Shown here piece after piece: positions 1 through 18,139 of a stretch of DNA of 32,312 nucleotides. The notes beneath the pieces are model-generated. The model had not been told where the DNA came from and ran no database searches. It saw only the letters and a list, made by a program, of their open reading frames with translations. The first letter of the stretch is position 1. Each line of letters begins with the position of its first letter. Source of the stretch: Christensenellaceae bacterium (lineage in GTDB: Bacteria > Bacillota > Clostridia > Christensenellales > Aristaeellaceae). The stretch lies in NCBI GenBank assembly GCA_022510815.1, contig JAFLST010000019.1, positions 19,276 to 51,587 of the forward strand, read 5' to 3'. Both the position numbers and the translations under genes were made by a program.

Positions 1-190
1 TCCCCACGGAAGTTCCGACGGAGGTGCCGACGGAAGTCCCCACGGATGTTCCGACTGATGTTCCGACAGACGTTCCGACTGATGTTCCGACTGACGTTCC
101 GACCGACGTTCCCACGGACGTTCCGACGAACGCTCCGACCGATGTTCCCACGGAAGCCCCAACGGATGCTCCCACCGATGTCCCCGCGCC
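1..190 (+). repeat. 12-bp tandem repeat encoding PTDV/PTEV
   Basis: About fifteen near-identical 12-bp units (CCGACGGAYGTT-like) run in frame from the window edge and continue upstream out of view. They encode Pro-Thr-Asp/Glu-Val, with a few Ala variants at the 3' end (PTNA, PTEA, PTDA). Such arrays can change length by slippage. Confidence 0.9.
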
Positions 191-3100
191 TGTGATGGTG
201 ACGGTGACGGTGCGCTACATCCACGCGATGTCGAATGAGATCGTCGCTGAAACGAGCGCCCAGTTCGAGCATGGCACGACGCAGCGCATTGAGGCGGTGC
301 AGGCGGCCTATCCGGACTACACCATCACGCCTGCCTACGCGGATATTGTGGTGAACGCGGACGCTCCGAACGTGGTCGAGTTCATGCTCACGCCGATTCA
401 GCAGCCGACGGATGTTCCGGCGCCTGATCCTATCAGCGTTGAGGTTAAGGTGGTCTATCAGGCGGAGGATGGCTCGCAGATTTTTGACCAGCAGAAGGTC
501 ATCTGCACGCAGGGGGAGCAGACCCCCGTGACCGCGAACAGCGCGAGCATCCCGGCTGGGTACACCCTTATCGGCGATGCGACCGTCTATGTGACGGTGG
601 ACGAGTACGGCAACGCCAGCCAGAACCCTGTGGTGTTCAACTATGCCGCGCCGCTGCCCGCCGACCGCAATGTCGACGTGCTCTATCAGACGGAGGTCGG
701 CCTGACGGTGGCGCAGGAATCTGTGTTCTGCGTCGTCGGCAGCACCACGGTCTCGCCGGACGCCTCCAAGCTGCCTGACAGCTATGTGTTAGTGGATCGC
801 AATCCTGTGACAGTGACGCTCCAGCAGGACGGCACGGCCAATCCTGATCCGGTGATCTTCCGCGTGATGGAGAAGCCGAATGAGACGCCGATTCCGCAGG
901 GCGATATGATTCAGCGCTGGGGCTATACCACCACGGGCGGTGTGAATGTGCGCCGCGAACCCAGCGCGAACTCTAACCGCGTGACCCAGATCAAGAGCAG
1001 CGGCACCATGGTGTATGTGCTGCGCGAGGAGATCGGCAAGGACGATGCGCGGTGGATGCGCGTGCTGATCAACGGCGATCAGTGCTTCATCAAGAGCGAA
1101 TACATCACGGTCATGTCCGGCTATGACAGCGACGAGTACATGCAGGCCAACTACAACTCGGCGAATGTCACGCCCGTGCCGCCCATGACGGCGGATCAGC
1201 TTGGCGACGCGGCTGGCACCCCCACGAACGCGCCGACGGCAACGCCCACCGCTGATCCCACGGCCACGCCGACAGCGGCCCCCACCCAGGCTCCGACGGA
1301 TGCGCCCACGCAGGCACCGACAGACGCGCCCACACAGGCTCCGACGGATGCACCCACGCAGGCACCGACCACCGCTCCGACGGACGTGCCCACGGCCTCT
1401 CCGACGCCCGCGCCTTACTTCGGCTATGCGCTGACGACCCAGCAGGTTGCTCTGCGCACGAGCATCAGCCGGGACGACAGCTCCATCATCGCCACGCTGG
1501 CGCAGAATACGCTGGTGCGGGTGACCCAGCCCGGCTATGACACCGACGGCACGCCTTGGAGCGTTGTGACCACGCTGGATAGCATGAGTGGCATGCTGCC
1601 CGACAGCAGCCTTCGCCGCATCACGGACGAGGAAGCGAAGTATTACCTCGATCAGTGGGAGAAAGAGCATGCCACGGCTACGCCGACCGTCACGCCGACC
1701 AACAGCCCGGTGCCTGCGATGGTGCAGGGTTACGCGGTGGCCATCGGCGATGATGTGCCTTACCGCAACATGCCCAGCAGCCTGAGCGTCATTCTCGGCC
1801 AGCTCATGAAGGACGAGGTCGTCTATGTGGCGGGTCAGGAATACGCGGACGGCGTCGTCTGGCATGTGGCTCAGTACGGCGGTCAGTGGGTGTATGTTCA
1901 GGCGAACCTCCTGCGAATGATGACCCCTGAAGAGGAACTGGCCTATCTGACGCAGGAACAAAAGACGCCTGAACCCACCCTCGCGGTGGACATCCCCACC
2001 TACAACCCCGACGGTATGTCCAGCTATGGCTACGTTTCCGCCAGCTCGGTCAACTTCCGCACCGCTGCCGGCACGAACAGCAGCCGCAACTCGAAGTATC
2101 CGACCCTGAAGCAGTACGCCTTCTGTCTGGTGCTCGGCACGCAGAAGATCGGCAATACCACTTGGTACAACGTCAATTATAACGGTGAAAAGGGCTACAT
2201 CTCCGGCGATTACTTCAAGCAGATGACGATCAATGAGCTGGAAAGCTTCATGAAGAGCCCGGAGTATCAGCAGGGACTGACGAATAACAACGCGCAGGAT
2301 TCCTTCGCGGGCACCGGAACGAGCGGCATTCCCAGCCGTGAGGATCAGGTTCGTCAGGAATGGGAAGGCAGCGGCAACTCGCCGAGCTATCAGCCCTTCG
2401 AGCCCTTCGGGACGCCCGGCCCGCTGGACACGAGTTCCGCTTCGCCTGACGCCTCGCCCTCGACCTCTCCCTCCGACGAGCCGACGATCTCCTTTGAGCC
2501 GCTGCCGACGGCGGATCCGAACGGCGGCGCGTCTTCAAAAGGCAGTTCCGGTTCGCCTTGGGGCATCGTGATCGCGATTGTCCTGCTGCTGACGGCGGCT
2601 GGCGGCGTGTATGTCTATCTGCGGATTCGCGACAGCAAGCGCAAGATGGCCCAGCGCGCGGCTCAGCGTCGTGCGCAGGCGGCCCGCGGCGACGCTCGTC
2701 CCTATGCCCGCAACAACGGCGCGACGCCTTCCCAGCAGCAGCCGCGTACAGGTACTTATCCGAACCAGAATGCCGCGCAGCAGACCCGCCGCCCCTACAG
2801 CGGCGCACCCGGTCAGAACGCGCAGCAGCCGACTGCCCGCCCCGCTCAGAACGGTGTATCCGGCGCGACGGTTCGGCCCGCCACTCCGCAGGTTGGCTTT
2901 GATCAGAACGGTGATACCGTTCGTCCTGTTCAGGGCCAGACAGCGCAGGAGACGGTGCGGCCCATCAGCCAGGCGCCGATGACAAGCGGCACTGTGACCG
3001 GCTTTGAACGCCCGGAGAGCCAGACGCCTCAGGCCAGCCAGCCGTCGAGCTTTGACGAGACCTATCGTCCGGAAAGCCAGACACCCCCGGCCAGCCAGCA

Positions 3101-3287
3101 GCCGTCGAGCTACACGGCAGCCTACCGTCCCGGCGGCGATACTACCCCGAGAACGGGCCGTCGGACGGCTTACCGTCAGACCCACAACGACTACACCGCG
3201 TCCTATCGCGCAGACGAAACCCCGAATGCCGACGCCAACAAGACTGGCGAGCAGCAGAACAAGGACTTCGCGAGTGACGACGAGTAA
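1..3287 (+). CDS. Large cell-surface SH3/MucBP-like repeat protein, 5' partial
   Basis: The reading frame is open to the first base, so the true start and N-terminus lie upstream; the GTG at 24 is only a repeat codon. Numbering from 24, residues 1-55 are tetrapeptide PTDV/PTEV repeats. About 57-282 holds three beta-rich units resembling MucBP domains (each opens with a V-x-V-x-Y strand). Four SH3b-like units follow near 299-365, 465-537, 567-640 and 667-740, each starting with W/Y-G-Y and several with a (V/A)-N-(V/F)-R-x motif. A second PT-rich linker spans about 399-462. One transmembrane segment lies near 846-868 and is followed by basic residues, so the last roughly 217 residues should be cytosolic. 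SH3b domains usually bind cell wall peptides, so a wall-spanning adhesin or envelope sensor is inferred. No catalytic domain is visible. Two hairpins follow the stop. Confidence 0.85.
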   Translation, partial: PTEVPTEVPTEVPTDVPTDVPTDVPTDVPTDVPTDVPTDVPTNAPTDVPTEAPTDAPTDVPAPVMVTVTVRYIHAMSNEIVAETSAQFEHGTTQRIEAVQAAYPDYTITPAYADIVVNADAPNVVEFMLTPIQQPTDVPAPDPISVEVKVVYQAEDGSQIFDQQKVICTQGEQTPVTANSASIPAGYTLIGDATVYVTVDEYGNASQNPVVFNYAAPLPADRNVDVLYQTEVGLTVAQESVFCVVGSTTVSPDASKLPDSYVLVDRNPVTVTLQQDGTANPDPVIFRVMEKPNETPIPQGDMIQRWGYTTTGGVNVRREPSANSNRVTQIKSSGTMVYVLREEIGKDDARWMRVLINGDQCFIKSEYITVMSGYDSDEYMQANYNSANVTPVPPMTADQLGDAAGTPTNAPTATPTADPTATPTAAPTQAPTDAPTQAPTDAPTQAPTDAPTQAPTTAPTDVPTASPTPAPYFGYALTTQQVALRTSISRDDSSIIATLAQNTLVRVTQPGYDTDGTPWSVVTTLDSMSGMLPDSSLRRITDEEAKYYLDQWEKEHATATPTVTPTNSPVPAMVQGYAVAIGDDVPYRNMPSSLSVILGQLMKDEVVYVAGQEYADGVVWHVAQYGGQWVYVQANLLRMMTPEEELAYLTQEQKTPEPTLAVDIPTYNPDGMSSYGYVSASSVNFRTAAGTNSSRNSKYPTLKQYAFCLVLGTQKIGNTTWYNVNYNGEKGYISGDYFKQMTINELESFMKSPEYQQGLTNNNAQDSFAGTGTSGIPSREDQVRQEWEGSGNSPSYQPFEPFGTPGPLDTSSASPDASPSTSPSDEPTISFEPLPTADPNGGASSKGSSGSPWGIVIAIVLLLTAAGGVYVYLRIRDSKRKMAQRAAQRRAQAARGDARPYARNNGATPSQQQPRTGTYPNQNAAQQTRRPYSGAPGQNAQQPTARPAQNGVSGATVRPATPQVGFDQNGDTVRPVQGQTAQETVRPISQAPMTSGTVTGFERPESQTPQASQPSSFDETYRPESQTPPASQQPSSYTAAYRPGGDTTPRTGRRTAYRQTHNDYTASYRADETPNADANKTGEQQNKDFASDDE
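1216..1410 (+). repeat. 12/24-bp tandem repeat encoding PTQAPTDA linker
   Basis: A second in-frame array of 12-bp units encodes PTxA/PTxP tetrapeptides. In the middle the units pair into a 24-bp higher-order repeat encoding PTQAPTDA, present about three to four times. It forms the linker between the first and second SH3b-like units. Confidence 0.85.
3006..3135 (+). repeat. Tandem repeat in the cytosolic tail of the surface protein
   Basis: Two imperfect copies of a roughly 20-residue unit (RPESQTPxASQ..PSS, then F/Y) lie in tandem near the C-terminus, each leading into a Y-R-P triplet. Upstream in the same tail the triplet T-V-R-P occurs three times (near 2868, 2918 and 2953). Confidence 0.7.
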
Positions 3288-6443: not shown

Positions 6444-7109
6444 ATGTTGACCATCCAGCAGCTTTACGACCTGTCGCATACCATGGCGCGGGATTATCTG
6501 AACGGGTTCACCTATCCGTGGGAGGCGCTCTCGGGCATCAAGGCGCTGATTCTTTCGCTGGGCGAGAAACTCGATCCGGCAGAGTACGACCAGCCCTCGC
6601 CGCAGGTGTGGGTTCACAAGACGGCGACGGTTGCGCCTACGGCGTATCTGGGTGCGCCCTGCATCATCGGCGCGGGCACTGAGGTGCGGCACGGGGCGTT
6701 TGTCCGGGGCAGCGCGCTGGTGGGCGAGGGCTGCGTCGTCGGCAACTCCGCCGAGCTCAAGAACGTCATCCTTTTTGACAATGTGCAGGTGCCCCATTAC
6801 AACTATGTCGGAGACAGCATCCTTGGTTACAAGTCTCACATGGGCGCCGGCTCCATCACCAGCAACGTCAAGAGCGACAAGAGTCTCGTCGTGGTCCGCG
6901 GCGGCGGGGAAGCCATCGAGACCGGCCTCAAGAAGTTTGGCGCGATGCTTGGCGATTACGTCGAGGTCGGCTGCAACAGCGTGCTGAATCCCGGCACGGT
7001 CATCGGCCGCAACAGCAATATCTATCCGCTGAGCTGCGTGCGCGGCGTGGTGCCCGAGGGACACATCTGGAAGACCGGCGGCGTGGTCGTCAAAAAACGC
7101 GAGGATTGA
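6444..7109 (+). CDS. Left-handed beta-helix (hexapeptide repeat) protein, GlmU C-terminal-like
   Basis: 221 residues from the ATG at 6444, chosen because AAGGAGG lies 6 bases upstream; an ATG at 6393 has no such site and sits almost on the predicted transcription start. After an N-terminal helical region, hexapeptide repeats run from about residue 45 (APTAYLGAPCIIGAGTEV and onward). Stretches such as NSAELKNV, VPHYNYVGDS and MGAGSITSN resemble the acetyltransferase half of GlmU. The uridylyltransferase half is absent. Acyl or acetyl transfer to a sugar nucleotide is plausible, but the substrate cannot be read from sequence. Databases often label such proteins UDP-N-acetylglucosamine pyrophosphorylase, which the missing domain does not support. 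Its stop codon lies inside the -35 of the next promoter. Confidence 0.8.
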   Translation: MLTIQQLYDLSHTMARDYLNGFTYPWEALSGIKALILSLGEKLDPAEYDQPSPQVWVHKTATVAPTAYLGAPCIIGAGTEVRHGAFVRGSALVGEGCVVGNSAELKNVILFDNVQVPHYNYVGDSILGYKSHMGAGSITSNVKSDKSLVVVRGGGEAIETGLKKFGAMLGDYVEVGCNSVLNPGTVIGRNSNIYPLSCVRGVVPEGHIWKTGGVVVKKRED

Positions 7110-7135
7110 CAGCGGCGGATATTTCGTGCTATAAT
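7106..7135 (+). promoter_or_regulatory. Consensus promoter of the erm leader
   Basis: Perfect TTGACA (7106-7111), an 18-bp spacer and perfect TATAAT (7130-7135). The -35 contains the TGA stop of the preceding gene. Predicted start near 7142. It is the only strong promoter I see before the methyltransferase, and a terminator lies in between. Confidence 0.9.
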
Positions 7136-7150
7136 CAGCCGAAGTCCAAT

Positions 7151-7207
7151 ATGAAGGAGAATCAATACGCCTTGTTAGTGATTTGTTTCATTCGTTTGAG
7201 GAAGTAA
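7151..7207 (+). CDS. Putative erm leader peptide with C-terminal RLRK
   Basis: An 18-codon ORF encodes MKENQYALLVICFIRLRK. Its Arg-Leu-Arg triplet (codons at 7193, 7196 and 7199) matches the R-L-R arrest motif of ErmD-type leader peptides, where macrolides stall the ribosome. With the ATG at 7151 the transcript would have only about 9 untranslated bases. Alternatively AAGGAG at 7154-7159 could serve an in-frame TTG at 7172, giving an 11-residue peptide with the same end. The stop codon overlaps the first bases of the terminator stem. Function is inferred from position and motif. Confidence 0.65.
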   Translation: MKENQYALLVICFIRLRK

Positions 7208-7244
7208 AAACAAGCCGCTTCTGAATCGCAAGCAGCTTGTTTTT
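7206..7244 (+). terminator. Intrinsic terminator acting as attenuator before erm
   Basis: AAAAACAAGC (7206-7215) pairs with GCTTGTTTTT (7235-7244). An inner GCTT/AAGC pairing (7217-7220 with 7230-7233) follows across one C/A mismatch, with a 9-base loop. The T-run is part of the stem. It sits between the only good promoter and the erm start, so erm expression needs readthrough. A ribosome stalled at the RLR codons would cover the 5' arm. Confidence 0.75.
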
Positions 7245-7287
7245 CGTACCGTTTTCTCATGCGTGTGAAAGGCAAGGTGTATTTTTT

Positions 7288-8034
7288 GTGTCTCAAAAAC
7301 AGAATAAGTATAGTATTTCGCAGAATTTCCTGACCAGCGGCGCGACCATCCGGCGGCTGATCCGGCACAGTGATCTTTGCGGGGACGACTTGGTCGTGGA
7401 GATCGGCGCGGGCAAGGGGCACATCACGCGGCAGCTCGCGGAGGTCTGCGGGCACGTCGTCAGCTATGAGATTGACCCGCTGTTATATGATCGTTTGCAG
7501 GGGACGCTCCCGGGAAACGTTTCACTGCGCCGCGGGGATTTCCTGACGGCACGCCTGCCGGGAAAGCCCTATAAGGTCTTTGCGAATATCCCGTTCTCCA
7601 TTACTACGGCGATCCTGCGCAAGCTGACCATGGACGGCAATCCGCCGGAGGCGGCATGGCTCATCGTGGAGAAGGGCGCGGCGATGCGGTTCTGCGGTTG
7701 CGGGCGCGACACGGCCATGAGCCTTGCGCTCAAACCGTGGTTTGATGTACGGATCGCTGCCAGCCTTCGCCGGGAGGATTTTCATCCGGCGCCGTCGGTG
7801 GATTGCGTGCTGCTGGAGCTGCGCCGCAGGAAGCTGCCGGACATACCAGTCAGTCAGCGCACGGCATGGATCCGCTTTACCGAGGCGGGGCTTCGGCAGG
7901 GCGTCCGGGGATTGACCCCGCACCAGATTCGCCGCGCGCTGCAGCGGGATAACGCGATTCCCATGTCGGGAACCATGCGCTATGTCCAGTGGCTGTGCCT
8001 GTTTCGATGCTGGCAGTCCATGCGCGGCAGATAA
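7288..8034 (+). CDS. erm: Erm-type 23S rRNA (adenine-N6) methyltransferase
   Basis: 248 residues from a GTG at 7288, a normal length for Erm. AAGG at 7274-7277 is the likely ribosome site; an upstream in-frame TTG at 7237 lies inside the terminator and is rejected. Visible family motifs: SQNFLTS (11-17), the SAM loop EIGAGKGH (38-45), the acidic YEID (60-63), GDF (83-85), catalytic NIPF (100-103) and FHPAPSVD (165-172). The QNFLTS opening and the FHP-P-V motif with a short C-terminal domain fit Erm better than KsgA. Erm enzymes dimethylate A2058 of 23S rRNA and give macrolide-lincosamide-streptogramin B resistance. Base composition resembles the surroundings and no mobile element is near, so it looks resident. 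The next gene is convergent, 7 bases away, with no clear terminator between. Confidence 0.88.
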   Translation: MSQKQNKYSISQNFLTSGATIRRLIRHSDLCGDDLVVEIGAGKGHITRQLAEVCGHVVSYEIDPLLYDRLQGTLPGNVSLRRGDFLTARLPGKPYKVFANIPFSITTAILRKLTMDGNPPEAAWLIVEKGAAMRFCGCGRDTAMSLALKPWFDVRIAASLRREDFHPAPSVDCVLLELRRRKLPDIPVSQRTAWIRFTEAGLRQGVRGLTPHQIRRALQRDNAIPMSGTMRYVQWLCLFRCWQSMRGR

Positions 8035-8627: not shown

Positions 8628-8888
8628 ATGGACAAGGGTGAACTGTTTCCCAAAGAGGTCGTGTCGGACATGCCGCGGGTCACGATGACGGGCAGTGAGC
8701 GCGTGCATGTGGAGCAGCACAAGGGCCTCATCGCGTATCAGCCGGAGGAGGTTGTCTTCCGGGTCGCGTCGGGCAGGCTGACGGTGTCTGGGCAGGAGCT
8801 GCGATTCCGCCTGTATACCTCGGGCGAGGCGATCCTGACCGGGCGGGTGGACAGCGTCGCCATCGCGGGAGGTGAGCGGACCGTATGA
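8628..8888 (+). CDS. yqfC: Sporulation protein YqfC
   Basis: 86 residues, the usual size of the YabP/YqfC family. The ATG follows AAGGAGGC. The protein shows the family pattern of short beta strands, beginning with a VTMTGSERVHVEQHKGLIAY-type segment, then a VSG turn and a GxVDSVAI end. It is expressed in the mother cell during sporulation in known Bacilli; the molecular role is not settled. Its stop overlaps the yqfD start as ATGA. A SigE-like promoter lies just upstream. It indicates that this organism forms spores or descends from a spore former. Confidence 0.9.
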   Translation: MDKGELFPKEVVSDMPRVTMTGSERVHVEQHKGLIAYQPEEVVFRVASGRLTVSGQELRFRLYTSGEAILTGRVDSVAIAGGERTV

Positions 8889-10033
8889 GGCCATGGCCTT
8901 ACACCTTCACGGCGGAGGGACTGAACATTGAGCGGCTGATCCGGCAGGCGGGCGAGCAGGGGATTGCGCTCTCCGGGCTCAAGCGCGGCGGATCGCGGAA
9001 GATCAGCGGCATGGTGTCGGAGGACGATCTGCCACGGCTCAGCGAGCTTGCCATGAGCGGCGGCTGGCGCTTTGAGGCAGGGCGGCGGCGGGGCGCTGGG
9101 AAATGGCTGGACACGCTCCGTCGGCGCTGGATGCTGGCGGCCGGATGCCTGCTGGCGGCGGTTTGTCTGGCAGTGGCCTCGCAGCTTGTGTGGCGCATCG
9201 AACTGGTTGACGCGGGAATCTACGAAGCTGATCTGCGGAATTATCTTGAGGTGCTGGAGGTACGGCCGATGCGCTGGAAGCGGAGTCTCGATCTGGGCGC
9301 GATCCGCGACAGCCTTGAATGGCGCTACCCGGAGGTGGCATGGATCGAGTGCGGCTTTCGCGGTATGACGCTGACCGTGACGGTGGTGGAGGGCGTGGCC
9401 TCTGGGGAAGCGCTGACGCATCTCGGCTCTGGCGACGTCGTGGCGGCCCGGGATGGCATGGTGGACAGCATCATCACGCTGGCTGGTACGCCACAGGTGC
9501 AGGCCGGGCAGATCGTCCGCGCGGGACAGGTGCTGATTCTTGGCGAGGAAAGGACGTCGGACGGCCTTGTGCGCCCGGTATCGGCACGGGGGAAAGTGCT
9601 GGCCCGAGTGTGGGACGGCGCGTCGGTCAAAATGAGCACACTGGAGCAGGCGACCGTCTATACGGGCCGTCGGCAGCAGGTCACGGTGGCGAGCTGCCCG
9701 TGGTTCGATCTCTGGCAGGCGGAGGCGTCGGGATACGAGCAGCAGGATACCGCCGTCCGCAGGATGCCGCTGGGCGGGCTGTTTCTGCCCTTCACGGTGC
9801 GCTTTGAGACGCGCATGGAGGCTGACTCCTCCCTGCAAGCGCGCGACATGGAGCAGGTCAAGACCGAGGCGGCGCTCGCGGCCCTGCGGAAGCTGCGGGA
9901 AAAGGTTGGAATCGATGATGTTTTTTTGACAAATTGGGTAGATTATAGTATGATAGATGATGAGGTACTGTTGGCTGTCGCTATTGGGGAACGGGTGATC
10001 GATATTGCGTCGCCAGCCCTCCGTGCGCAGTGA
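8885..10033 (+). CDS. yqfD: Sporulation protein YqfD
   Basis: 382 residues, matching the YqfD family. A cytosolic N-terminal domain of about 75 residues is followed by a basic patch (RRRGAGKW, RRR), one membrane helix near 82-102 (LAAGCLLAAVCLAVA-like) and a large external part. The family signature of a beta-rich post-membrane domain is visible in IELVDAGIY and WIECGFRGMTLTVTVVEG. YqfD is a SigE-controlled sporulation protein paired with YqfC; it probably acts at the mother-cell membrane. Start overlaps yqfC by 4 bases. The last 110 bases of the gene also contain the promoter for phoH. Confidence 0.9.
   Translation: MRPWPYTFTAEGLNIERLIRQAGEQGIALSGLKRGGSRKISGMVSEDDLPRLSELAMSGGWRFEAGRRRGAGKWLDTLRRRWMLAAGCLLAAVCLAVASQLVWRIELVDAGIYEADLRNYLEVLEVRPMRWKRSLDLGAIRDSLEWRYPEVAWIECGFRGMTLTVTVVEGVASGEALTHLGSGDVVAARDGMVDSIITLAGTPQVQAGQIVRAGQVLILGEERTSDGLVRPVSARGKVLARVWDGASVKMSTLEQATVYTGRRQQVTVASCPWFDLWQAEASGYEQQDTAVRRMPLGGLFLPFTVRFETRMEADSSLQARDMEQVKTEAALAALRKLREKVGIDDVFLTNWVDYSMIDDEVLLAVAIGERVIDIASPALRAQ
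9926..9954 (+). promoter_or_regulatory. Internal promoter in yqfD for the phoH-era operon
   Basis: Perfect TTGACA (9926-9931), 17-bp spacer and TATGAT (9949-9954), in a locally AT-rich stretch within the yqfD coding sequence. The predicted start near 9961 is about 117 bases before phoH. It would give the housekeeping genes vegetative expression independent of the sporulation promoter. Confidence 0.75.
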
Positions 10034-10077
10034 GCGGCGCCGCATGAAAAGACACGCTTGAAAGAAGGCTTTGCTCT

Positions 10078-11070
10078 TTGACAAAGACCCTGAAGCTGAC
10101 GCTGTCCGTGGATTCGATGGACGCGTATATGTCCCTCTTCGGACTGAACGACCAGAACGTCGCGCTGCTGGAGCAGGAGTGCGGCGTGACCATCGCCCTG
10201 CGCGGGGCGGAGCTGACCATTACCGGTGAGGAAGAGGACACCCAGCTTGCCGCCGGAGTGATCGAGAAGCTGGTCGATATGATCCACCGCCGCGAGCTCG
10301 TGGACCGCAGCCGCATCCGTTACGCGCTGGCGCTGGCCCGTGAAGGCAAGGTGGACATGATTGACGAGATCCTGCGCAATGTGGTGGCGATCACCCACCG
10401 GGGCAAGCAGATCAAATGCAAGACCCTCGGTCAGCAGCAGTATGTGCAGGCGATCCGTGATCACGACCTGACCTTTGCTGTTGGCCCGGCGGGCACCGGC
10501 AAGACCTACCTTGCCATGGCGCTGGCCGTGGTTGCGCTCAAGAACAAGGAGATCGAGCGCATCGTGCTGACCCGTCCGGCGGTGGAGGCGGGAGAAAAGT
10601 TAGGCTTCCTGCCCGGCGACCTGACCCAGAAGGTCGACCCCTACCTGCGTCCGCTCTATGACGCGCTCTATGATTTCATGGGTGTGGACAGCTATCAGAA
10701 GCTGCTGGAGCGCGGCACGGTGGAGGTGGCTCCGCTGGCCTACATGCGCGGCCGCACGCTGTCGGACTCCTTCATTATTCTCGACGAGGCGCAGAACACC
10801 ACCTCTGAGCAGATGAAGATGTTCCTGACCCGTCTGGGGTTCAACTCCAAGGTGGTCGTTACCGGCGACGTGACCCAGACCGATCTGCCCTTCGGCAAGA
10901 AATCCGGCCTTGCAGAGGCCCTTGACATCCTCAAGGACATTCCCGCCATCGGCATGGTACGCCTGACCCATCAGGACGTGGTGCGCCACGAGCTGGTGCA
11001 GCAGATCGTTCAAGCTTATGACGCGTACTTCGCCGCCGGAGTCCAGAACAAAGGAAAGGAAGCGACCTGA
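10078..11070 (+). CDS. phoH: PhoH family P-loop ATPase
   Basis: 330 residues, typical for the PhoH/YlaK-type group found next to ybeY in Firmicutes. The start is a TTG with AAGAAGG about 9 bases upstream. An N-terminal KH-like region (1-100) precedes the ATPase: Walker A GPAGTGKTY near residues 139-147 and Walker B FIILDEAQN near 232-240, followed by VVTGDVTQTD (sensor region). PhoH proteins are predicted RNA-linked ATPases/helicase-like enzymes; the exact role is open, but linkage to YbeY and Era suggests rRNA processing. The stop is one base before the yqfF start. Confidence 0.93.
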   Translation: MTKTLKLTLSVDSMDAYMSLFGLNDQNVALLEQECGVTIALRGAELTITGEEEDTQLAAGVIEKLVDMIHRRELVDRSRIRYALALAREGKVDMIDEILRNVVAITHRGKQIKCKTLGQQQYVQAIRDHDLTFAVGPAGTGKTYLAMALAVVALKNKEIERIVLTRPAVEAGEKLGFLPGDLTQKVDPYLRPLYDALYDFMGVDSYQKLLERGTVEVAPLAYMRGRTLSDSFIILDEAQNTTSEQMKMFLTRLGFNSKVVVTGDVTQTDLPFGKKSGLAEALDILKDIPAIGMVRLTHQDVVRHELVQQIVQAYDAYFAAGVQNKGKEAT

Positions 11071-11071
11071 G

Positions 11072-13519
11072 ATGCCCCGGGGAAAGACCAACGAAAAGAA
11101 AAAGCGCCGGAATGGCGTGAAGCGGATCGGAGACTGGCTGCACAGCGGCGAGGCGAAGTGCACCGGGCTGATTCTGCTGGGCACGCTGCTGATCTTTGGC
11201 CTGTTCTGTCTTTCCAGCGCCCCGACGCGCTATGATCTGACGGTCGGCGCCATTTCCCACCAGACGATCACCGCCACCAAGGACGTGGAGGACACCATCG
11301 CCACGGAGGAGCGCCGCAGAACTGCCGCCGCATCGGTGGAGCCGACTTATCATCAGCTCGAGGGCGCTTCGGAGGAGGTCATGGACGCCCTCGATACGGT
11401 GTTCGGGGAGCTGCGCCTTGCCCAGCAGTACGGCCAGTCCCTGCGCGGCGAGGAGGAGACGGATATACAGTTCCAGCAGCATGTCTTTGCAGATGCGGAG
11501 ATTACCCATGCGCAGGAGCTGGTGCGTTCGCTGACGCTCACGTCGTATCAGGCGCGGATGCTGATGCGCTCGGAAACGGTGCAGTTTGACGAGATGGTCA
11601 AGAGCGTCCGTCAGGCGGTGGAGAGCGCGCTGAACGCGACCATCCGCGAGGGGCAGGAGAGCCAGGCCATCAGCAATATCCGTCAGGTCATCAGCTCCCA
11701 TGTGGATATTTCGCTTTATCAGAATATTGTCCCGACGGTGCTGAGCGCTTGCATCAGGCCCAACATGGTCATCGAGACCGAGGCGACGGAACAGGCCCGG
11801 CAGGCGGCGATGGACGCTGTGGAGCCTGTCATGTACCTGCAGGGACAGAACATCATCCGTCAGGGCGAGCGCGTGAGCTCCAACCAGCTGGAGATGCTCA
11901 AAGCGCTGGGCCTGCTGGAAAACAACGACTATGACTACTCGATCTACTGCGGCGCGGCGCTGCTGATTGCGGCGGCTGTCCTGCTGATGGTCATGCTGCT
12001 GCGGATGCTGTCCCGGGACACGCTGTCCCGCCCGCGGTCCGTGGCGGTGATCATGCTGGTCATGGTGCTTTGCGAGGCGCTGGCTGTGCTGATGGTCAAG
12101 GTCATCAACGTGTATATGGCGCCGGTGGCGCTGGGCGCGATGCTGCTGACGGGCCTGCTGGGCGGGCGCGTGGCTGTTTCGACGGTCATCAGCATGGCGA
12201 TGATGATCGCGGGTCTGATGGCTGGCAGCAATACGACCTACTCCACTGAGATGGTGCACCTGCTGATCATGGGTATGTTCGGCAGCGTGGTGACCATCAA
12301 GTTCCTGCGCGGAAAGCCTCAGCGCGTGCGGATGCTGATCTGCGGCATTTTGGTAGCGCTGTCGAATCTGGCGATTATGGCCGCGATTGGCCTGATGACC
12401 TCTGCGAATCTCCTGAGCAATCAGCAGAATATTGGCTGGGCCATGGCGGGCGGTCTGCTCAGCGGCGTGCTGGCGGTGGGCCTGCAGCCTATTTTCGAGG
12501 CCGTGTTCAATCTGGCCACCCCGAGCAAGCTGCTGGAGATGGCCAACCCCAATCAGCCGCTGCTGCGCCGCTTGCAGCTGGAGGCTCCCGGCACCTATCA
12601 TCATTCGATCATCGTGGCGAATCTGGCGGAGGCGGCTGCGGAGAAGATCGGCGCGAATCCTCTGCTGGCCAGAACAGGCGCGTATTTCCATGATATCGGC
12701 AAGCTCAAGCGCCCGCTGTATTTCAAGGAAAACCAGATGGGCGAGAATCCCCATGACCGCACCGATCCTTATGTCTCTGCGGCCATCGTGACCACCCATA
12801 CCCGCGACGGTCTGCAGCTGGCCCAGAAGCACCGTCTGCCCAAGGAGATTCAGGACATCATCGTTCAGCACCATGGCGACACGCCTGTGATGTACTTCTA
12901 CCATAAGGCGCTCCAGCAGGCCGACGGGAAGCCGGTGAATGCCGATGATTTCCGCTATGACGGCATCAGGCCGACGACCAAGGAAGCCGCGATCGTCATG
13001 CTGGCGGATACCATTGAGGCAGCCGTCCGCTCCATGTCTGATCCCACGCCAGAGTCCATCGCGAAGTTCATTGAGAGGCTGGTGCGCGGCAAGCTGGAGG
13101 ATGGGCAGCTCAGCAATTCTCCGCTGACGCTGCGTGATATCGACGGCATCTGCGAGGCCTTCTGCACGGTGCTTAACGGCGTGTTCCATGAGCGGATCGA
13201 GTATCCCAGCGTACAGGTGCCCGAGCGCGGCGCCGCCGCGGCGAAGGAAGTCCTCAAACAGGCAGATGCCGCGAAGAAGCAGGAACCGACCAAGGCGCCT
13301 GACTCGGTAAAACCGACTGAAGTTCAGAAGCCTGCCGAGCGATCGAAAGCGCAGGAAAGTGCTGAACAGCCGGCTGCGGAGAAGAACGTAACTGAGGAAG
13401 CGGAAAGCCCTGAAAAGGAAGCGGAACCGGCTGATACCGCGGAACCGACCGGCACACAGACGGATGCGAAGCCGATCGAGGTCTCCAAGCCTGAGCATGC
13501 GGAGGAAGCCGGAGAATGA
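11072..13519 (+). CDS. pgpH: 7TM-HD domain cyclic-di-AMP phosphodiesterase (YqfF/PgpH)
   Basis: 815 residues from the ATG at 11072, with AAAGGAAG upstream; a frame start at 11018 overlaps phoH and is rejected. After a Lys/Arg-rich start and one membrane helix (near 30-50), an external 7TMR-HDED region runs to about 290. Then come seven membrane helices (about 295-490) and a cytosolic HD domain. HD residues are visible: HHSIIVANL, the HDIGK motif, H at THTRDG, HHGD, and a final D in ADTIEAAV. PgpH of Listeria hydrolyses c-di-AMP to pApA, and the same reaction is inferred here. The C-terminal 85 residues are an unusual Lys/Glu/Pro-rich tail that looks disordered. ATGA overlap with ybeY follows. 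Confidence 0.93.
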   Translation: MPRGKTNEKKKRRNGVKRIGDWLHSGEAKCTGLILLGTLLIFGLFCLSSAPTRYDLTVGAISHQTITATKDVEDTIATEERRRTAAASVEPTYHQLEGASEEVMDALDTVFGELRLAQQYGQSLRGEEETDIQFQQHVFADAEITHAQELVRSLTLTSYQARMLMRSETVQFDEMVKSVRQAVESALNATIREGQESQAISNIRQVISSHVDISLYQNIVPTVLSACIRPNMVIETEATEQARQAAMDAVEPVMYLQGQNIIRQGERVSSNQLEMLKALGLLENNDYDYSIYCGAALLIAAAVLLMVMLLRMLSRDTLSRPRSVAVIMLVMVLCEALAVLMVKVINVYMAPVALGAMLLTGLLGGRVAVSTVISMAMMIAGLMAGSNTTYSTEMVHLLIMGMFGSVVTIKFLRGKPQRVRMLICGILVALSNLAIMAAIGLMTSANLLSNQQNIGWAMAGGLLSGVLAVGLQPIFEAVFNLATPSKLLEMANPNQPLLRRLQLEAPGTYHHSIIVANLAEAAAEKIGANPLLARTGAYFHDIGKLKRPLYFKENQMGENPHDRTDPYVSAAIVTTHTRDGLQLAQKHRLPKEIQDIIVQHHGDTPVMYFYHKALQQADGKPVNADDFRYDGIRPTTKEAAIVMLADTIEAAVRSMSDPTPESIAKFIERLVRGKLEDGQLSNSPLTLRDIDGICEAFCTVLNGVFHERIEYPSVQVPERGAAAAKEVLKQADAAKKQEPTKAPDSVKPTEVQKPAERSKAQESAEQPAAEKNVTEEAESPEKEAEPADTAEPTGTQTDAKPIEVSKPEHAEEAGE

Positions 13520-14415
13520 AGCTTCTGTGGCAAATTGAAACGGAGACTGCCCCGGCATGGCTGTCGCTGATCCAGACGGCGGCTGACGCGGCGCTGCTGA
13601 CGGAAGGCGTGGCGCGGCCCTGCGCGGCGTCCATCCGGGTCTGCGGCGATGAAGCCATCCGAGAGGTCAATCGCGAGTGCAGGGGCATCGACCGGGCGAC
13701 GGACGTGCTGTCCTTTCCGACGGTGGGCTATCCGGCGGGGACGACAGCGGGTTGTGCGGACAAGCTGCTGCTTCGGGAGTTCGACGATGAGCTGAACGCC
13801 TGCATGCTGGGCGACCTGATCATCAGCGTGCCTCATGTGCTGGCGCAGGCGGAGGAATACGGCCATTCCCCGGAGCGGGAAGCGGCCTACCTGACGGTGC
13901 ACGGACTGTGTCACCTGATGGGCTACGACCATATCGAGGAAGATGATCGAAGGAGGATGCGCGCGATGGAAGAGAAGATTCTGGCGTCCATCGGCATGGA
14001 TCGCGACGAGAGCGCTGCTGTGAGCGACGAGACGCTGCTGGCCTTGGCGATTCAGGCGCGGGAACGCAGCTATTCGCCCTATTCCGGGTTTGCTGTCGGC
14101 GCGGCGCTGCTGTGTGAGGACGGTCGCGTGTTTCAGGGCTGCAACATCGAGAATGCTTCCTTTGGCCTGACCAACTGCGCGGAGCGTACGGCGCTCTTCA
14201 AGGCAGTCAGCGAGGGCGCAAGGGAATTTACAGCCATTGCCATCGCGGCGGAGAAAGCGGCGCCTTGGCCCTGCGGCGCGTGCAGGCAGGCCCTCAATGA
14301 GTTTGCGCCGGGGATCCGCGTGCTGGTGACATGGGACGGACAGACCGACGAAAAGCCGCTTTCCGAGCTGCTGCCCTGCGGCTTCGGCCCCAAAGAGCTG
14401 CCAAAGAAGGAGTAA
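13516..14415 (+). CDS. ybeY-cdd: Fusion of rRNA maturation RNase YbeY and cytidine deaminase
   Basis: A single uninterrupted ORF of 299 residues joins two enzymes. Residues 1-162 are YbeY with the metal-binding motif HGLCHLMGYDH (129-139) and the upstream RATDVLSFP signature. Residues 168-299 are a homotetrameric-type cytidine deaminase: SPYSGFAVGAAL, GCNIENASFG, the catalytic C221-A-E223 and P-C253-GA-C256 for zinc. Both halves keep all key residues, so both activities are expected: 16S rRNA 3'-end maturation and ribosome quality control, and cytidine/deoxycytidine salvage. I see no stop, frameshift or internal ribosome site at the junction (about 13985-14030). In many Firmicutes these are separate neighbouring genes, often with dgkA between them; dgkA is absent here. 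Start overlaps yqfF as ATGA. Confidence 0.92.
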   Translation: MKLLWQIETETAPAWLSLIQTAADAALLTEGVARPCAASIRVCGDEAIREVNRECRGIDRATDVLSFPTVGYPAGTTAGCADKLLLREFDDELNACMLGDLIISVPHVLAQAEEYGHSPEREAAYLTVHGLCHLMGYDHIEEDDRRRMRAMEEKILASIGMDRDESAAVSDETLLALAIQARERSYSPYSGFAVGAALLCEDGRVFQGCNIENASFGLTNCAERTALFKAVSEGAREFTAIAIAAEKAAPWPCGACRQALNEFAPGIRVLVTWDGQTDEKPLSELLPCGFGPKELPKKE

Positions 14416-14417
14416 AC

Positions 14418-15314
14418 ATGGCTGAACAGACGAAGTTCCATTCTGGATTTGTGACCATTGTCGGCAGGCCCAATGTGGGCAAGTCGACGCTGATGAACGC
14501 GCTGGTGGGCGAGAAGGTTGCCATTGTCTCGAACCGCCCGCAAACGACCCGCAACCGCATCATGGGCGTGATGACCCGGCCTGACTGGCAGGTGGTCTTC
14601 CTTGATACCCCCGGCATTCATACGCCCCGCACCCGGCTGGGCGAGTACATGATGCAGTCCGTCCGCGACGCGATGGACGGCATGGATGGTGTGCTGGTGC
14701 TGGTCGACGCGACGCAGGTGGGAGAGCACGACCGTGCGATCGTGGCTGACATGGCGCAGAAAAAAGTGCCGAAGATTCTTGCGCTCAACAAGATTGACCT
14801 GCTGCCCCGGGAGAAGCTGCTGGGGCTCATGGCGTCCTTCGCGGAAAGTGGTTACGACGCGATCATCCCCATCAGCGCGAAGACCGGCGACGGTCTTCCG
14901 GAGCTCACCAAGGCACTGGTGACCTCGCTGCCGGAGGGCCCGAAGTACTTCCCGGACGATATGATGACTGATCAGCCTGAACGGCTGATCTGTGCTGAGA
15001 TGATCCGCGAAAAGGCGCTGCTTCACCTGCGGGACGAGGTGCCCCACGGCATCGGCGTGGAAATGATGGCGATGAACAAGGAAAACGACAATTTCATGGA
15101 GATTCACGCCACCATCTACTGCGAGCGGGACGCCCACAAGGGCATCATCATTGGCAAGCATGGGGCCATGCTGCGGCAGATCGGCACCGAGGCCCGGGAG
15201 GACATTGAGGCGCTGCTGGGTATGCACGTCAACCTCAAGCTGTGGGTCAAGGTCCGGCCTGACTGGCGAAACCGCATGGACGACCTGCGCAATCTTGGGT
15301 ACGAGAACAAATAA
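14418..15314 (+). CDS. era: GTPase Era
   Basis: 298 residues from the ATG at 14418, two bases after the preceding stop, with AAGAAGGAG overlapping that stop; a longer frame from 14331 is rejected. G motifs: GRPNVGKST (G1), a Thr-rich switch QTTRNRI (G2), DTPG (G3), NKID (G4) and SAK (G5). The C-terminal KH domain carries the GKHGAMLRQIGTEAR signature, which binds the 3' end of 16S rRNA. Era is a 30S assembly GTPase and works in the same process as YbeY. It is the last gene of the operon; a strong terminator follows at 15323. Confidence 0.96.
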   Translation: MAEQTKFHSGFVTIVGRPNVGKSTLMNALVGEKVAIVSNRPQTTRNRIMGVMTRPDWQVVFLDTPGIHTPRTRLGEYMMQSVRDAMDGMDGVLVLVDATQVGEHDRAIVADMAQKKVPKILALNKIDLLPREKLLGLMASFAESGYDAIIPISAKTGDGLPELTKALVTSLPEGPKYFPDDMMTDQPERLICAEMIREKALLHLRDEVPHGIGVEMMAMNKENDNFMEIHATIYCERDAHKGIIIGKHGAMLRQIGTEAREDIEALLGMHVNLKLWVKVRPDWRNRMDDLRNLGYENK

Positions 15315-15354: not shown

Positions 15355-15358
15355 CATG

Positions 15359-16531
15359 TCAGTCAAAGATTTGGAAAATGCCGCACTTGAGATACTGGGT
15401 TTCCGGCGAAGCGGGAAGAATCGGGTGATCGCGGCCTTGCGTGCGGTACTCGACCTGCCGCAGGTGCACCCGCGCGTCATGGGCGGCATCCTTCACGATG
15501 GACATGAATGCGTCCGGCAGGATATGCTGGCTGCAGGAGCAGGTGACGAGATAACCGCCGGGACGGACCAGCTTCATGGCACGGAGATTGATCTCCTTGT
15601 AGCCGCGGGTAGCGCTTTCGATGGCGCTGCGGGTCTTGGTGAAGGCTGGCGGATCGAGGATGACAACATCGTACTTCTTGCCCTCGCGGGACTCGCGCGC
15701 CAACAGGTCGAAAGCGTTGGCCTCCACGAAATGCACCAGGTCTTCAAGGCCGTTCAGTTTCGCGTTCTCCGTGGCAAACTCGCAGGCATAGGCGGAAATA
15801 TCGACGCCGGTGACTTCCTTCGCGCCGAAATGTCCCGCGTGCAGGGCAAAGCTGCCCGTATGGGTGAAGCAGTCCAGCACCGTCTTGTCCTTAACGAAGG
15901 GCGCGATGGCGGCGCGGTTCTCCTTCTGGTCGAGGAAGAAGCCTGTCTTCTGGCCCTCCTTGACGTCCACGAGGAACCGCACGCCGTTCTCGACCATCTC
16001 CACCCGGTCAGGCACCTCGCCGTAGAGCAGGCCGGTGGTCATCTCGAGGCCCTCCAGCCGCCGGACGGGCACATCGTTGCGTTCCCAGATGCCAGCGGGA
16101 TGCAGCTCCTCCGCCAAGGCGTCGACCACATCCTGCTTGAAGCGTTCCATGCCCAGCGCCAGACACTGCAGCACCAGCACGTCACCGAAGCTGTCGACGA
16201 TCAGCGCGGGCAGACGGTCGCTCTCGGCGAAGATCATCCGGCAGGATTTCAGGTCGGCAAAGGTTCGGCGATAATCGACGGCTTCCTTTACCCGGCGGAA
16301 GATGAACGCCCGGTCGATAGGCTCATCCTTGTAGCTCATCACGCGCAGGGCAATCTGGCTCTGCGGGTTATAGAAAGCCTTGCAGAGGAACTTCCCCTTG
16401 CTGGACGCTACGTCAACGATGTCGCCCGGCGTGAAGCTCCCCTCTACGCGGGCGATGTCGCTGCGGAAGACCCATGGATGGCCGCTGAAAACGCGCTTCT
16501 CCTTGCCGGGAATGAGGATGGCTGTCGCCAT
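15359..16531 (-). CDS. rlmI: RlmI-like class I rRNA (cytosine-C5) methyltransferase
   Basis: 390 residues, the typical length for RlmI/RlmK-type enzymes. An N-terminal PUA domain (1-75, with the GHPWVFRSDI signature) is followed by an EEHEA-like middle region and a Rossmann methyltransferase. SAM and catalytic motifs: LDCFTHTGSFALHA, GVDIS, ILDPPAFTK and TCSCSQH, the last holding the likely catalytic cysteine. E. coli RlmI makes m5C1962 in 23S rRNA; the same class of reaction is inferred, the exact site is not proven. GGAGG precedes the ATG. It lies 12 bases downstream of pyrG and is probably co-transcribed with it. Confidence 0.88.
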   Translation of the reverse strand: MATAILIPGKEKRVFSGHPWVFRSDIARVEGSFTPGDIVDVASSKGKFLCKAFYNPQSQIALRVMSYKDEPIDRAFIFRRVKEAVDYRRTFADLKSCRMIFAESDRLPALIVDSFGDVLVLQCLALGMERFKQDVVDALAEELHPAGIWERNDVPVRRLEGLEMTTGLLYGEVPDRVEMVENGVRFLVDVKEGQKTGFFLDQKENRAAIAPFVKDKTVLDCFTHTGSFALHAGHFGAKEVTGVDISAYACEFATENAKLNGLEDLVHFVEANAFDLLARESREGKKYDVVILDPPAFTKTRSAIESATRGYKEINLRAMKLVRPGGYLVTCSCSQHILPDAFMSIVKDAAHDARVHLRQVEYRTQGRDHPILPASPETQYLKCGIFQIFD

Positions 16532-16543
16532 GGGATTGCCTCC

Positions 16544-18139
16544 TTATTGCGCCATCGCCGTGCGGATGAACGCGGTGAAAAGCGGATGCGCCTTGTTGGG
16601 GCGGGAGATGAACTCGGGATGATAGATCACGCCGATGTAGAAGGGATGCCCGGGCAGCTCAAAGGCCTCGGGATAGCCGCCCTCGGCGCAGGTGCCGACA
16701 AAGCGCAGGCCCTTTTCCTCCAGCGGCGCGACGAAGGCCGGGTCGATCTCATAGCGGTTGCTGTGACGCTCGCGGATTTCCGTGCAGCCATAGATGCCGG
16801 AGAGCTGACCCTCGGAGAGCTTCACGTCAAAGCCGCCGTTGCGGGCATGCTGGCGGCTGTCATTCACGCCGATGCGGTCAGCGGGAATGCGCACCACCGC
16901 GGGGCTGCAGCCATGGTCAACCTCCGTGGAGTTCGCGCCGGCCTGTTCCAGCAGGGAGCGGACAGCCTCCACCGTCGCAAGCTGCATGCCGAAGCCGATC
17001 ATCAGGCAGGGCACGCCATGGGTGCGCGCGTACTTCGCCGCCGCCACAATGCCCTCCGCGCCGCGGTCGCCATAGCCGCCCGGAAGCACAATACCCGCGT
17101 AACCGGCCAGCGTCTCGGCGGCGTTTTCGTCGGTCAGGTCGTCGGAGCCGATCCAGTCCAGCTTGACAGCCACCTGATTGGCGATGCCTGCATGGGTCAG
17201 CGCCTCGGCGACGGACAGGTACGCGTCGTGCAGCTCCACATACTTGCCTACAAGCGCGATGCGGACAGCGCCGTCGGGATGGGTGAAGCGATCAAGCATT
17301 GTCTCCCAGTCGGCCAGATCGACCTTTTCGGGCTGCAGGTCAAGCTCGCGGCACACGGCGGCGGCAAGGCCTTCCTTTTCCAGCATCATGGGGACGTGAT
17401 AGAGCGTCTTGGCGTCGGCGTTCTGGAAGACGTTGCCAGCCTTGACGTTGCAGAACAGGGCGATCTTTTCCTTGGCTTCGGTGGAGATGGGCACCTCGGT
17501 GCGGCAGACGATGATGTCCGGCTGGATGCCGATGGAGCGAAGATTCTTGACGGAGTGCTGGGTGGGCTTGGTCTTCATTTCGCCCGCGACGGACAGATAG
17601 GGCAATAGCGTCACATGAATGAAGCACACGTCATGCGGGCCCAGCTCCCACTTCATCTGGCGGATGGCCTCCAGATAGGGCGAGGACTCCATGTCGCCGA
17701 CGGTGCCGCCGATTTCGACGATGGCCACGTCCGCGCCGCAGTTCTCGGCGGTGCGCAGGATGCGCTCCTTGATCTCGTTGGTGACATGGGGAATCACCTG
17801 CACCGTGCCGCCATGGTATTCGCCGCGCAGCTCCCGCTCGACGATGGCCTTGTGGATCTTGCCCGTGGTGATGGACGCTTCGCCGCGCAGGCTTTCGTCG
17901 ATGAAGCGCTCGTAGTGACCGAGGTCAAGGTCGGCTGCCACGCCGTCGTCGGTGATGAAGGCCTCGCCATGCTGCAGGGGAGACAGCAGGCCGGGATCGA
18001 CATTGTAATAGGGGTCGCACTTCTGCATGGAGACCTTGTAGCCGCGCGCCTTGAGCAGCCGCCCCAGAGACGAGGCGGTGATTCCCTTGCCAAGCGAGGA
18101 TACCACGCCGCCGGTGACAAAGACAAACTTTGTTGCCAT
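16544..18139 (-). CDS. pyrG: CTP synthase with altered glutaminase active site
   Basis: 531 residues from the ATG at 18139 (AAGGAG about 11 bases upstream), the normal CTP synthase length. The N-terminal synthetase domain is well kept: VTGGVVSSLGKG, CDPYYNVDPG, LDLGHYERF and EIGGTVGD. The C-terminal class I glutaminase domain is odd. The nucleophile motif, usually GICLGMQ, reads MIGFGMQ; the cysteine position is Gly382 (codon GGC, plus-strand 16994-16996). The GTMRLG-type segment is replaced by a QHARNGG region and RHRHRYE by RHSNRYE. The HPEF motif and the PGGYGDRG oxyanion loop remain. The synthetase may therefore use free ammonia only. A sequencing error could explain the Gly alone but not the other changes. 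Confidence 0.93.
   Translation of the reverse strand: MATKFVFVTGGVVSSLGKGITASSLGRLLKARGYKVSMQKCDPYYNVDPGLLSPLQHGEAFITDDGVAADLDLGHYERFIDESLRGEASITTGKIHKAIVERELRGEYHGGTVQVIPHVTNEIKERILRTAENCGADVAIVEIGGTVGDMESSPYLEAIRQMKWELGPHDVCFIHVTLLPYLSVAGEMKTKPTQHSVKNLRSIGIQPDIIVCRTEVPISTEAKEKIALFCNVKAGNVFQNADAKTLYHVPMMLEKEGLAAAVCRELDLQPEKVDLADWETMLDRFTHPDGAVRIALVGKYVELHDAYLSVAEALTHAGIANQVAVKLDWIGSDDLTDENAAETLAGYAGIVLPGGYGDRGAEGIVAAAKYARTHGVPCLMIGFGMQLATVEAVRSLLEQAGANSTEVDHGCSPAVVRIPADRIGVNDSRQHARNGGFDVKLSEGQLSGIYGCTEIRERHSNRYEIDPAFVAPLEEKGLRFVGTCAEGGYPEAFELPGHPFYIGVIYHPEFISRPNKAHPLFTAFIRTAMAQ

What the first reader, a model, noticed from the sequence alone, without database searches (positions are those of the whole stretch)
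7106..8034. erm gene with a built-in RLR-leader transcription attenuator
Seen: a perfect TTGACA-18-TATAAT promoter, an ORF ending in IRLRK, then an intrinsic terminator whose 5' arm starts at the ORF's stop codon, then an Erm-type methyltransferase with no other visible promoter. Known: the ErmD-class leader peptide arrests macrolide-bound ribosomes at Arg-Leu-Arg, and ermK of Bacillus licheniformis is controlled by transcription attenuation. Inference: with drug, a ribosome stalled with the Leu codon (7196) in its P site reaches to about 7210 and masks the 5' arm (7206-7215), so RNA polymerase reads through into erm; without drug the ribosome leaves and the terminator forms. The compact design, with one hairpin and no translational masking, is unusual.
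Basis: partly seen in the sequence, partly recalled or inferred. Interest (0 to 1): 0.75.

Follow-up and report, generated by a model that had tools for sequence, protein, structure and literature searches.

The report
Drug-sensing attenuator before an erm gene
A short leader peptide and a transcription-stop hairpin sit in front of a macrolide-resistance (erm) gene in a Clostridia genome, and related genes keep the same layout; it most likely lets the gene switch on only when a macrolide stalls the ribosome, much like a known Bacillus switch but with two alternative locks on the gene's ribosome-binding site.

Summary
In detail: perfect TTGACA-18-TATAAT promoter (7106-7135), leader ORF ending IRLRK* (7207), hairpin 7206-7244, erm 7288-8034. 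Comparison makes it more than chance: of 25 related Erm loci 18 have R-[LIMVFYW]-R-(x)-stop upstream (1.05 expected from shuffles), two more have RxR with a longer tail, three an altered motif, two none. The terminator pairing covaries; an antiterminator does not (P 0.97). So direct occlusion of the terminator by a ribosome arrested at Arg-Leu-Arg is the best-supported mechanism; drug dependence is untested. (1) There is predicted translational masking: the erm Shine-Dalgarno pairs with the leader's start region (7164-7176/7271-7283, 13 bp) or with the terminator's 3' arm plus U-tract, and both pairings fit their own locus better than swapped ones. (2) The nearest studied system is not ermK (antiterminator) but Bacillus subtilis tlrB (leader MIIQFIRYR*, no antiterminator, SD lock; PMC6851288). 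The leader probably starts at TTG 7172. Against a complete model: a ribosome modelled at RLR only partly opens the window's terminator and does not free the erm SD. New variant of a known kind.

The parts
7106..7135 (+). sigma-A type promoter TTGACA-18-TATAAT; its -35 box overlaps the stop codon of the gene before it
   Evidence: matches of 8 to 12 of 12 upstream of the leader in the 22 loci scanned
7154..7159 (+). AAGGAG, likely Shine-Dalgarno of the leader (12 nt before TTG 7172)
   Evidence: sequence; aligned GGAG-type sites in relatives
7164..7176 (+). segment 1: anti-SD lying across the leader's start codon; pairs with 7271-7283
   Evidence: 13 bp, -17.0 kcal/mol against -10.6/-10.7 with swapped partners; class-wide covariation
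7172..7207 (+). leader ORF, probably TTG start, MLVICFIRLRK*; ATG 7151 (MKENQYALLVICFIRLRK*) or GTG 7178 not excluded
   Evidence: start codon by alignment with the TTG of L064/L081
7193..7201 (+). Arg-Leu-Arg arrest motif; Leu codon 7196-7198 would be in the P site
   Evidence: RxR recurs in 20 of 25 loci; P/A-site assignment from ErmDL and tlrB toeprints in print
7206..7244 (+). intrinsic terminator hairpin: segment 2 (7206-7220) and segment 3 (7230-7244), five-U tract inside the 3' arm
   Evidence: -14.3 kcal/mol; pairing covaries in 19 loci
7232..7245 (+). segment 3 as second anti-SD: 7236-7245 pairs 7267-7276 and 7232-7234 pairs 7278-7280
   Evidence: -15.8 kcal/mol, swapped partners -9.1/-12.3; class-wide test
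7274..7279 (+). AAGGTG, Shine-Dalgarno of erm (segment 4 core)
   Evidence: sequence; aligned with GAGGTGTATTTTTTATG of relatives
7288..8034 (+). erm: 23S rRNA adenine-N6-methyltransferase-like gene, GTG start, 248 aa
6441..7109 (+). upstream gene, hexapeptide-repeat (GlmU C-terminal-like) transferase; neighbour, not part of the switch

Best explanation
A chromosomal, drug-inducible erm gene controlled by a ribosome-arrest attenuator of the tlrB layout. Without drug a ribosome finishes the leader and leaves; the terminator that starts at the leader's stop codon forms and RNA polymerase stops before erm. In rare readthrough RNA the erm SD is hidden by pairing with the leader's own start region, which also shuts the leader. 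With a macrolide the ribosome halts with Leu (7196) in the P site and Arg in the A site, covers the foot of the terminator's 5' arm, and polymerase reads into erm; no antiterminator is used. The SD must then be released; which ribosome position does that is not settled. Shown here: anatomy and conserved, covarying pairings. Inferred: drug-dependent arrest, readthrough, SD release, methylation of A2058.
For: Leader motif in 18 of 25 Erm loci against 1.05 expected, 2 of 23 KsgA-type control loci. Terminator pairing own -19.7 against -12.8 kcal/mol swapped, P 5e-5, n 19; segments 1:2 (antiterminator) P 0.97, controls 1:3 P 0.45 and 2:4 P 0.40. SD locks: 1:4 own -11.2 against -9.2 (sd 0.39), n 21; 3:4 own -14.5 against -11.6 (sd 0.56), n 19; none of 20000 permutations as good in either. 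1:4 core: 90.8% of 120 cells paired, slid versions at most 55.6%. Occlusion: terminator-base pairing 0.89 to 0.45 on placing a ribosome at RxR, 19-locus mean. Published parallel: tlrB; RLR/+X+ arrest with ErmDL.
Against: No expression, toeprint or resistance data exist for this sequence here. In the window the occlusion is weak (0.99 to 0.76) and the hairpin was missed by the simple scan. A ribosome at RxR leaves the erm SD closed in the model (8.7 against 8.4 kcal/mol free in the window; 17 of 19 loci stay at 4 or more). The three nearest Erm genes (L003, L004, L005; sister group of the window) lack RxR (RIAR instead), and L037 and L058 lack the leader. In one search two of five measures (pairs with a change on both sides, 198/500; further pair types, 131/500) do not exceed shuffles. 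The strict motif also turns up in 7 of 19 lower-scoring loci; two of these (L062, L063) look like real leaders and five (L073-L077) like chance or shared descent. Permutation P values ignore relatedness.
Confidence: 0.77

Rival explanations
1. ermC/ermD-like translational attenuation is the main control and the hairpin at 7206-7244 is chiefly part of the SD switch (2:3 competing with 3:4), terminating little in the cell.
For: Both SD locks covary. The window's hairpin has a short U run and was not listed as a terminator. With a ribosome in the first codons of the leader the SD opens (WIN 0.7-2.6 kcal/mol for P-12 to P-33) while 2:3 stays formed.
Against: In the relatives the hairpin is a strong stem directly followed by a T-rich tract (19 of 22 loci examined gave a simple one; L069 none, L040 and L041 only long branched folds). 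A ribosome at RxR does not open the SD in the model.
Confidence: 0.13
2. Classical antiterminator attenuation as described for ermK: arrest frees an upstream strand that pairs with the terminator's 5' arm.
For: Window 7171-7176 CUUGUU could pair 7209-7214 AACAAG (read; best window duplex -9.4).
Against: Segment 1:2 pairing is no better within loci than between them (own -6.9, swapped -7.8, P 0.97, n 19).
Confidence: 0.03
3. Leader and hairpin are relics; erm is expressed constitutively or not at all in this organism.
For: The sister genes have lost RxR and L058 has lost the leader while keeping erm; genome is a draft without expression data.
Against: Consensus promoter, intact leader, hairpin, SD pairing and uninterrupted erm frame all persist in the window, and the window's 1:4 pairing is the strongest of the 21 tested.
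Confidence: 0.07

Closest known systems
Bacillus subtilis tlrB (yxjB) attenuator (PMC6851288; passages and sections 8 and 13 read)
   Same: Short leader ending FIR-X-R at or next to its stop (MIIQFIRYR* there, CFIRLRK* here); terminator whose base a ribosome stalled at RxR would cover; no antiterminator; SD-hiding structure in readthrough RNA that also shuts the leader.
   Different: Target gene there is RlmA(II) acting on G748, here an Erm; a NusG-dependent pause is shown there and was not tested here; here the terminator's 3' arm and U-tract form a second SD lock; I did not compare the tlrB nucleotide sequence.
ermK of Bacillus licheniformis (PMC5418344 passages; original papers only seen in reference lists)
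   Same: erm gene under macrolide-dependent transcription attenuation with a leader peptide.
   Different: Described as switching through an antiterminator; not supported here.
ErmDL arrest peptide (PMC8298421 passages)
   Same: Arg-Leu-Arg with Leu in the P site and Arg in the A site; L061 and L053 leaders (MTASMRLRFPALNR, MTASMRIRN) resemble it.
   Different: Here RLR ends the leader and is preceded by CFI rather than HSM.
vmlR of B. subtilis (PMC9226507 passages)
   Same: Terminator plus a separate SD-sequestering hairpin.
   Different: Uses anti-antiterminator and antiterminator, three-codon uORF (MIN), arrest at initiation, ABC-F target.
ermC translational attenuator (recalled, and PMC5418344 passages)
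   Same: Alternative pairing of a 3:4 SD hairpin with 2:3.
   Different: Segment 2:3 doubles as a transcription terminator here.

Membership tests
tlrB-type ribosome-arrest attenuator | leader with R/K-X-R/K at its C terminus next to the stop | tested here: met
   RLRK* in the window; 18 of 25 related loci by the strict pattern
tlrB-type ribosome-arrest attenuator | terminator starting at the stop codon, no overlapping antiterminator | tested here: met
tlrB-type ribosome-arrest attenuator | SD-sequestering structure in readthrough RNA | tested here: met
   predicted and covarying; no probing data
tlrB-type ribosome-arrest attenuator | macrolide-dependent arrest and induction | not testable with these tools
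   needs toeprinting and reporters
tlrB-type ribosome-arrest attenuator | NusG-dependent pause between leader and gene | not tested
   no pause-motif scan was made
tlrB-type ribosome-arrest attenuator | target gene is RlmA(II) | tested here: not met
   target is Erm-like; works like tlrB control, is not tlrB
ermK-type attenuator | antiterminator formed on arrest | tested here: not met
   P 0.97, n 19
Erm 23S rRNA methyltransferase | NCBIfam NF000499 above its cut-off of 212 bits | tested here: inconclusive
   205.6 bits, best family match, KsgA 112
Erm 23S rRNA methyltransferase | distinct from the genome's own KsgA; SAM and N-I-P-F motifs present | tested here: met
   KsgA at G000:C14; EIGAGKGHIT and NIPF (motif meaning recalled)
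Erm 23S rRNA methyltransferase | methylates A2058 and confers MLS-B resistance | not testable with these tools
   no assay

The most novel reading that the evidence does not exclude
A two-position switch: a ribosome arrested at RxR permits transcription through the terminator, whereas a ribosome on the first codons of the leader (covering segment 1 while the terminator hairpin refolds) is what frees the erm SD. Transcription would then report drug-hit ribosomes and translation would report ribosomes still loading on the leader, so erm protein would be made when at least some ribosomes work again; drugs that halt ribosomes in the first codons would favour SD release and macrolides at RxR would favour readthrough. 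The terminator's 3' arm serves both steps.
Probability: 0.15. Interest if true: 0.7.

Novelty: new variant of a known kind. Interest (0 to 1): 0.47.

Why it matters
It points to a set of chromosomal, draft-genome Erm genes (none of the 1743 plasmid records with a match reaches 60% identity) whose control resembles a Bacillus ribosome-arrest switch rather than the textbook erm switches. It shows that one short leader type (FIR-X-R then stop, then terminator) stands before at least two separate Erm groups and, in print, before tlrB. It also raises a testable question: how a single stalled ribosome can both permit transcription and release a Shine-Dalgarno that two strands compete to hide.

Tried and rejected
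Antiterminator (segments 1:2): tested on 19 loci, rejected. Rfam: one sub-threshold match in 6900-7500 (Thr_leader, 18 bits against a gathering score of 55, E 0.86), taken as chance. A stalled ribosome as sole opener of the SD: modelled with 5' edges P-15 to P-34, does not work well (mean 8.4, 7.5, 6.6, 7.1 kcal/mol against 9.2 free). Plasmid-borne origin: best listed plasmid match 34.3% identity. A wider hunt for the leader before other genes: a narrow nucleotide pattern matched 1 of 291 class genomes, the genome of L068, so it says little. Terms ermK, RLR, tlrB and uORF/attenuation were searched in the paper library; I saw no paper on this Erm group in those lists, which is weak evidence; Term-seq (PMC5756622) is not held.

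Choices that affect counts. The 25 loci are those with profile score 280 or more (next lower 246) out of 50 loci with a match in the pipeline; 30 passed, 5 exact duplicates (L032, L033, L034, L051, L052) were dropped. L046-L050 were not put in (the genomes of L004, L005, L006, L003 and the window fetched again); L055 has no upstream DNA. L065/L066 and L004/L005 are near-copies that stay in the 25. Pair tests used 22 loci with a leader less L005, and less L005, L040, L041. In one search six loci do not beat their own shuffles at 0.06 or better (L003 0.136, L004 0.21, L035 0.064, L069 0.13, L040 0.498, L041 0.268). rows were anchored by hand on CACC/GGTG and five identical loci were merged. Leader start codons of relatives were read by eye; L036 has no ordinary start codon.

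Full report
What is there. The stretch 7106-8034 reads promoter, leader ORF, hairpin, erm. The promoter is a perfect TTGACA-18-TATAAT with TG before the -10. The leader frame ends ...C-F-I-R-L-R-K-stop at 7207. The hairpin pairs 7206-7215 with 7235-7244 and 7217-7220 with 7230-7233, -14.3 kcal/mol. The erm frame starts at GTG 7288 with AAGGTG eight bases before it. The protein's best family is NCBIfam's broad Erm model (205.6 bits, cut-off 212), and its nearest solved structures by sequence are 1yub and ErmC' (E 1.8e-27 and 3.8e-27; the name ErmAM for 1yub is recalled). The genome keeps a separate KsgA. The simple terminator scan did not list the hairpin, so it is not a textbook terminator taken alone.

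Is it kept? I collected relatives by protein and read the DNA before each. Among 25 Erm loci scoring 280 or more, 18 have R-[LIMVFYW]-R-(one residue or none)-stop in the 50-300 nt upstream, where dinucleotide shuffles give 1.05; 2 of 23 KsgA-type loci have it. Two further loci have RxR with a longer tail (L041 IRLRQV*, L054 NIRLRTRRR*), three have an altered end (L003 CIRIARMWK*, L004 and L005 QLRIARFWK*), two have no leader (L037, L058). Among 19 lower-scoring loci 7 match; two, L062 MGIRFIRIR* and L063 MGICFIRMR*, look like true leaders before another Erm group, and five, L073-L077, do not (297 nt away in four near-copies). In the tree the window's Erm groups with L003-L005 (100/99), and the labelled leaders need 5 changes against 12.3 for shuffled labels (the label there includes L003-L005 and L061-L063).

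Where the leader starts. In L064 and L081 the frame starts TTG-GGT-ATT-TGT right after ACACC; the aligned codon in the window is TTG 7172, giving MLVICFIRLRK*. This is inference; ATG 7151 and GTG 7178 remain possible.

Pairings. I named four segments: 1, around the leader start; 2 and 3, the hairpin arms, 3 including the U-tract; 4, the erm SD. For each pair of segments I asked whether a locus's own two strands pair better than strands swapped between loci. Terminator 2:3: -19.7 against -12.8 (P 5e-5, the floor of 20000 permutations). 1:4: -11.2 against -9.2 (n 21, P 5e-5). 3:4: -14.5 against -11.6 (n 19, P 5e-5). Antiterminator 1:2: P 0.97; controls 1:3 P 0.45, 2:4 P 0.40. On a hand-anchored alignment of 15 distinct rows the eight-pair core of 1:4 is paired in 90.8% of 120 cells and has 12 cells changed on both sides against 5.0 (sd 1.7) in shuffles; slid versions reach at most 55.6%. 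Two other measures there do not exceed shuffles (3 pairs with a two-sided change, 198/500; 10 further pair types, 131/500). In one pair, for example, A-U in eight rows is G-C in five and G-U in two. These tests do not correct for shared ancestry, so independent changes are fewer than rows. The window has the strongest 1:4 pairing of the 21 (13 bp, -17.0), and its 3' strand covers the erm SD while its 5' strand covers the TTG start codon.

How it most likely works. The tlrB gene of B. subtilis has a nine-residue leader MIIQFIRYR, a terminator with no antiterminator found, an SD-hiding structure that also shuts the leader, and tylosin-dependent arrest with Tyr in the P site and the last Arg in the A site (PMC6851288). 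The window matches that layout feature by feature except for the target gene. ErmDL arrest at Arg-Leu-Arg has Leu in the P site and Arg in the A site (PMC8298421). By analogy a ribosome halts with 7196 in its P site and covers the foot of the terminator. In the model this lowers pairing at the terminator base from 0.89 to 0.45 over 19 loci, but in the window only from 0.99 to 0.76, reaching 0.40 if the ribosome stands one codon further; hairpin energy available drops from -14.4 to -7.1 kcal/mol when bases to P+15 are taken away.

What the model does not explain. With the ribosome at RxR the erm SD stays closed: opening energy 8.7 kcal/mol in the window against 8.4 free, and only 2 of 19 loci fall below 4. 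The SD opens when a ribosome occupies roughly the first six codons: 0.7-2.6 in the window for P-12 to P-33, 12-16 of 19 loci below 4, with the terminator still formed. So in this static picture readthrough and SD release need different ribosome positions. The masks are crude (31 nt, no steric effects, no kinetics), and the tlrB authors hold that their stalled ribosome does prevent the SD hairpin. I record this as an open step and as the boldest reading.

Surroundings. The gene before erm is found in 14 of 18 genus genomes; beside it erm was seen only in the window's genome, within about 1.5 kb, none in the other 13. Four of 18 genus genomes hold an Erm of this group at E 1e-50 or better, with other DNA upstream in the three relatives. 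In wider samples 9 of 398 phylum genomes and 18 of 391 class genomes had a match at E 1e-45 or better, including some outside the 25. All 1743 plasmid records with a match are under 60% identical. This suggests a scattered chromosomal gene that moves or is lost now and then. The named relatives are MAGs from deer gut, rumen-type and other sources.

Specificity. tlrB's leader answers to tylosin and not to erythromycin, and ErmDL needs RLR strictly for telithromycin but less for erythromycin. The inducer for FIRLR cannot be read from the sequence; a negative erythromycin test alone would not refute the model.

Verdict. Observation confirmed; interpretation right in outline, wrong on translational masking and on the closest relative. 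A new variant of a known kind.

Noticed in passing
L003, L004, L005, about 420 nt upstream of erm: The nearest Erm genes have longer leaders ending IRIARMWK* or LRIARFWK*, without RxR, yet the terminator still starts 3-4 nt after the stop's first base; geometry would put an arrest near the last Arg-(Met/Phe)-Trp.
   Followed up: partly
L062, L063: A separate Erm group (profile scores 164 and 159) also has FIR[IM]R-stop leaders followed by a stem and T-run, but no ACACC-type anti-SD was seen before the start.
   Followed up: partly
L061: ErmD-like leader MTASMRLRFPALNR* before an Erm scoring 179.
   Followed up: no
L058: Erm locus that keeps the SD region and T-rich tract but has no recognisable leader; may be a natural loss.
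   Followed up: no
L036, L038: Leaders end IRLRK* but L036 has no ordinary start codon (ATA at the place where L038 has ATA then GTG).
   Followed up: no
L039:1142-1813: The erm match holds one in-frame stop; described only.
   Followed up: no
window 24-3284 and 15356-17605: Long frames (1087 and 750 aa) without a Pfam match at 1e-10.
   Followed up: no
window 8885-15311: Downstream lies a YqfD, PhoH, 7TM-HD, YbeY plus cytidine deaminase, Era-like run, an ordinary chromosomal setting (the gene name Era is my reading of the MMR_HSR1 and KH_2 domains).
   Followed up: partly
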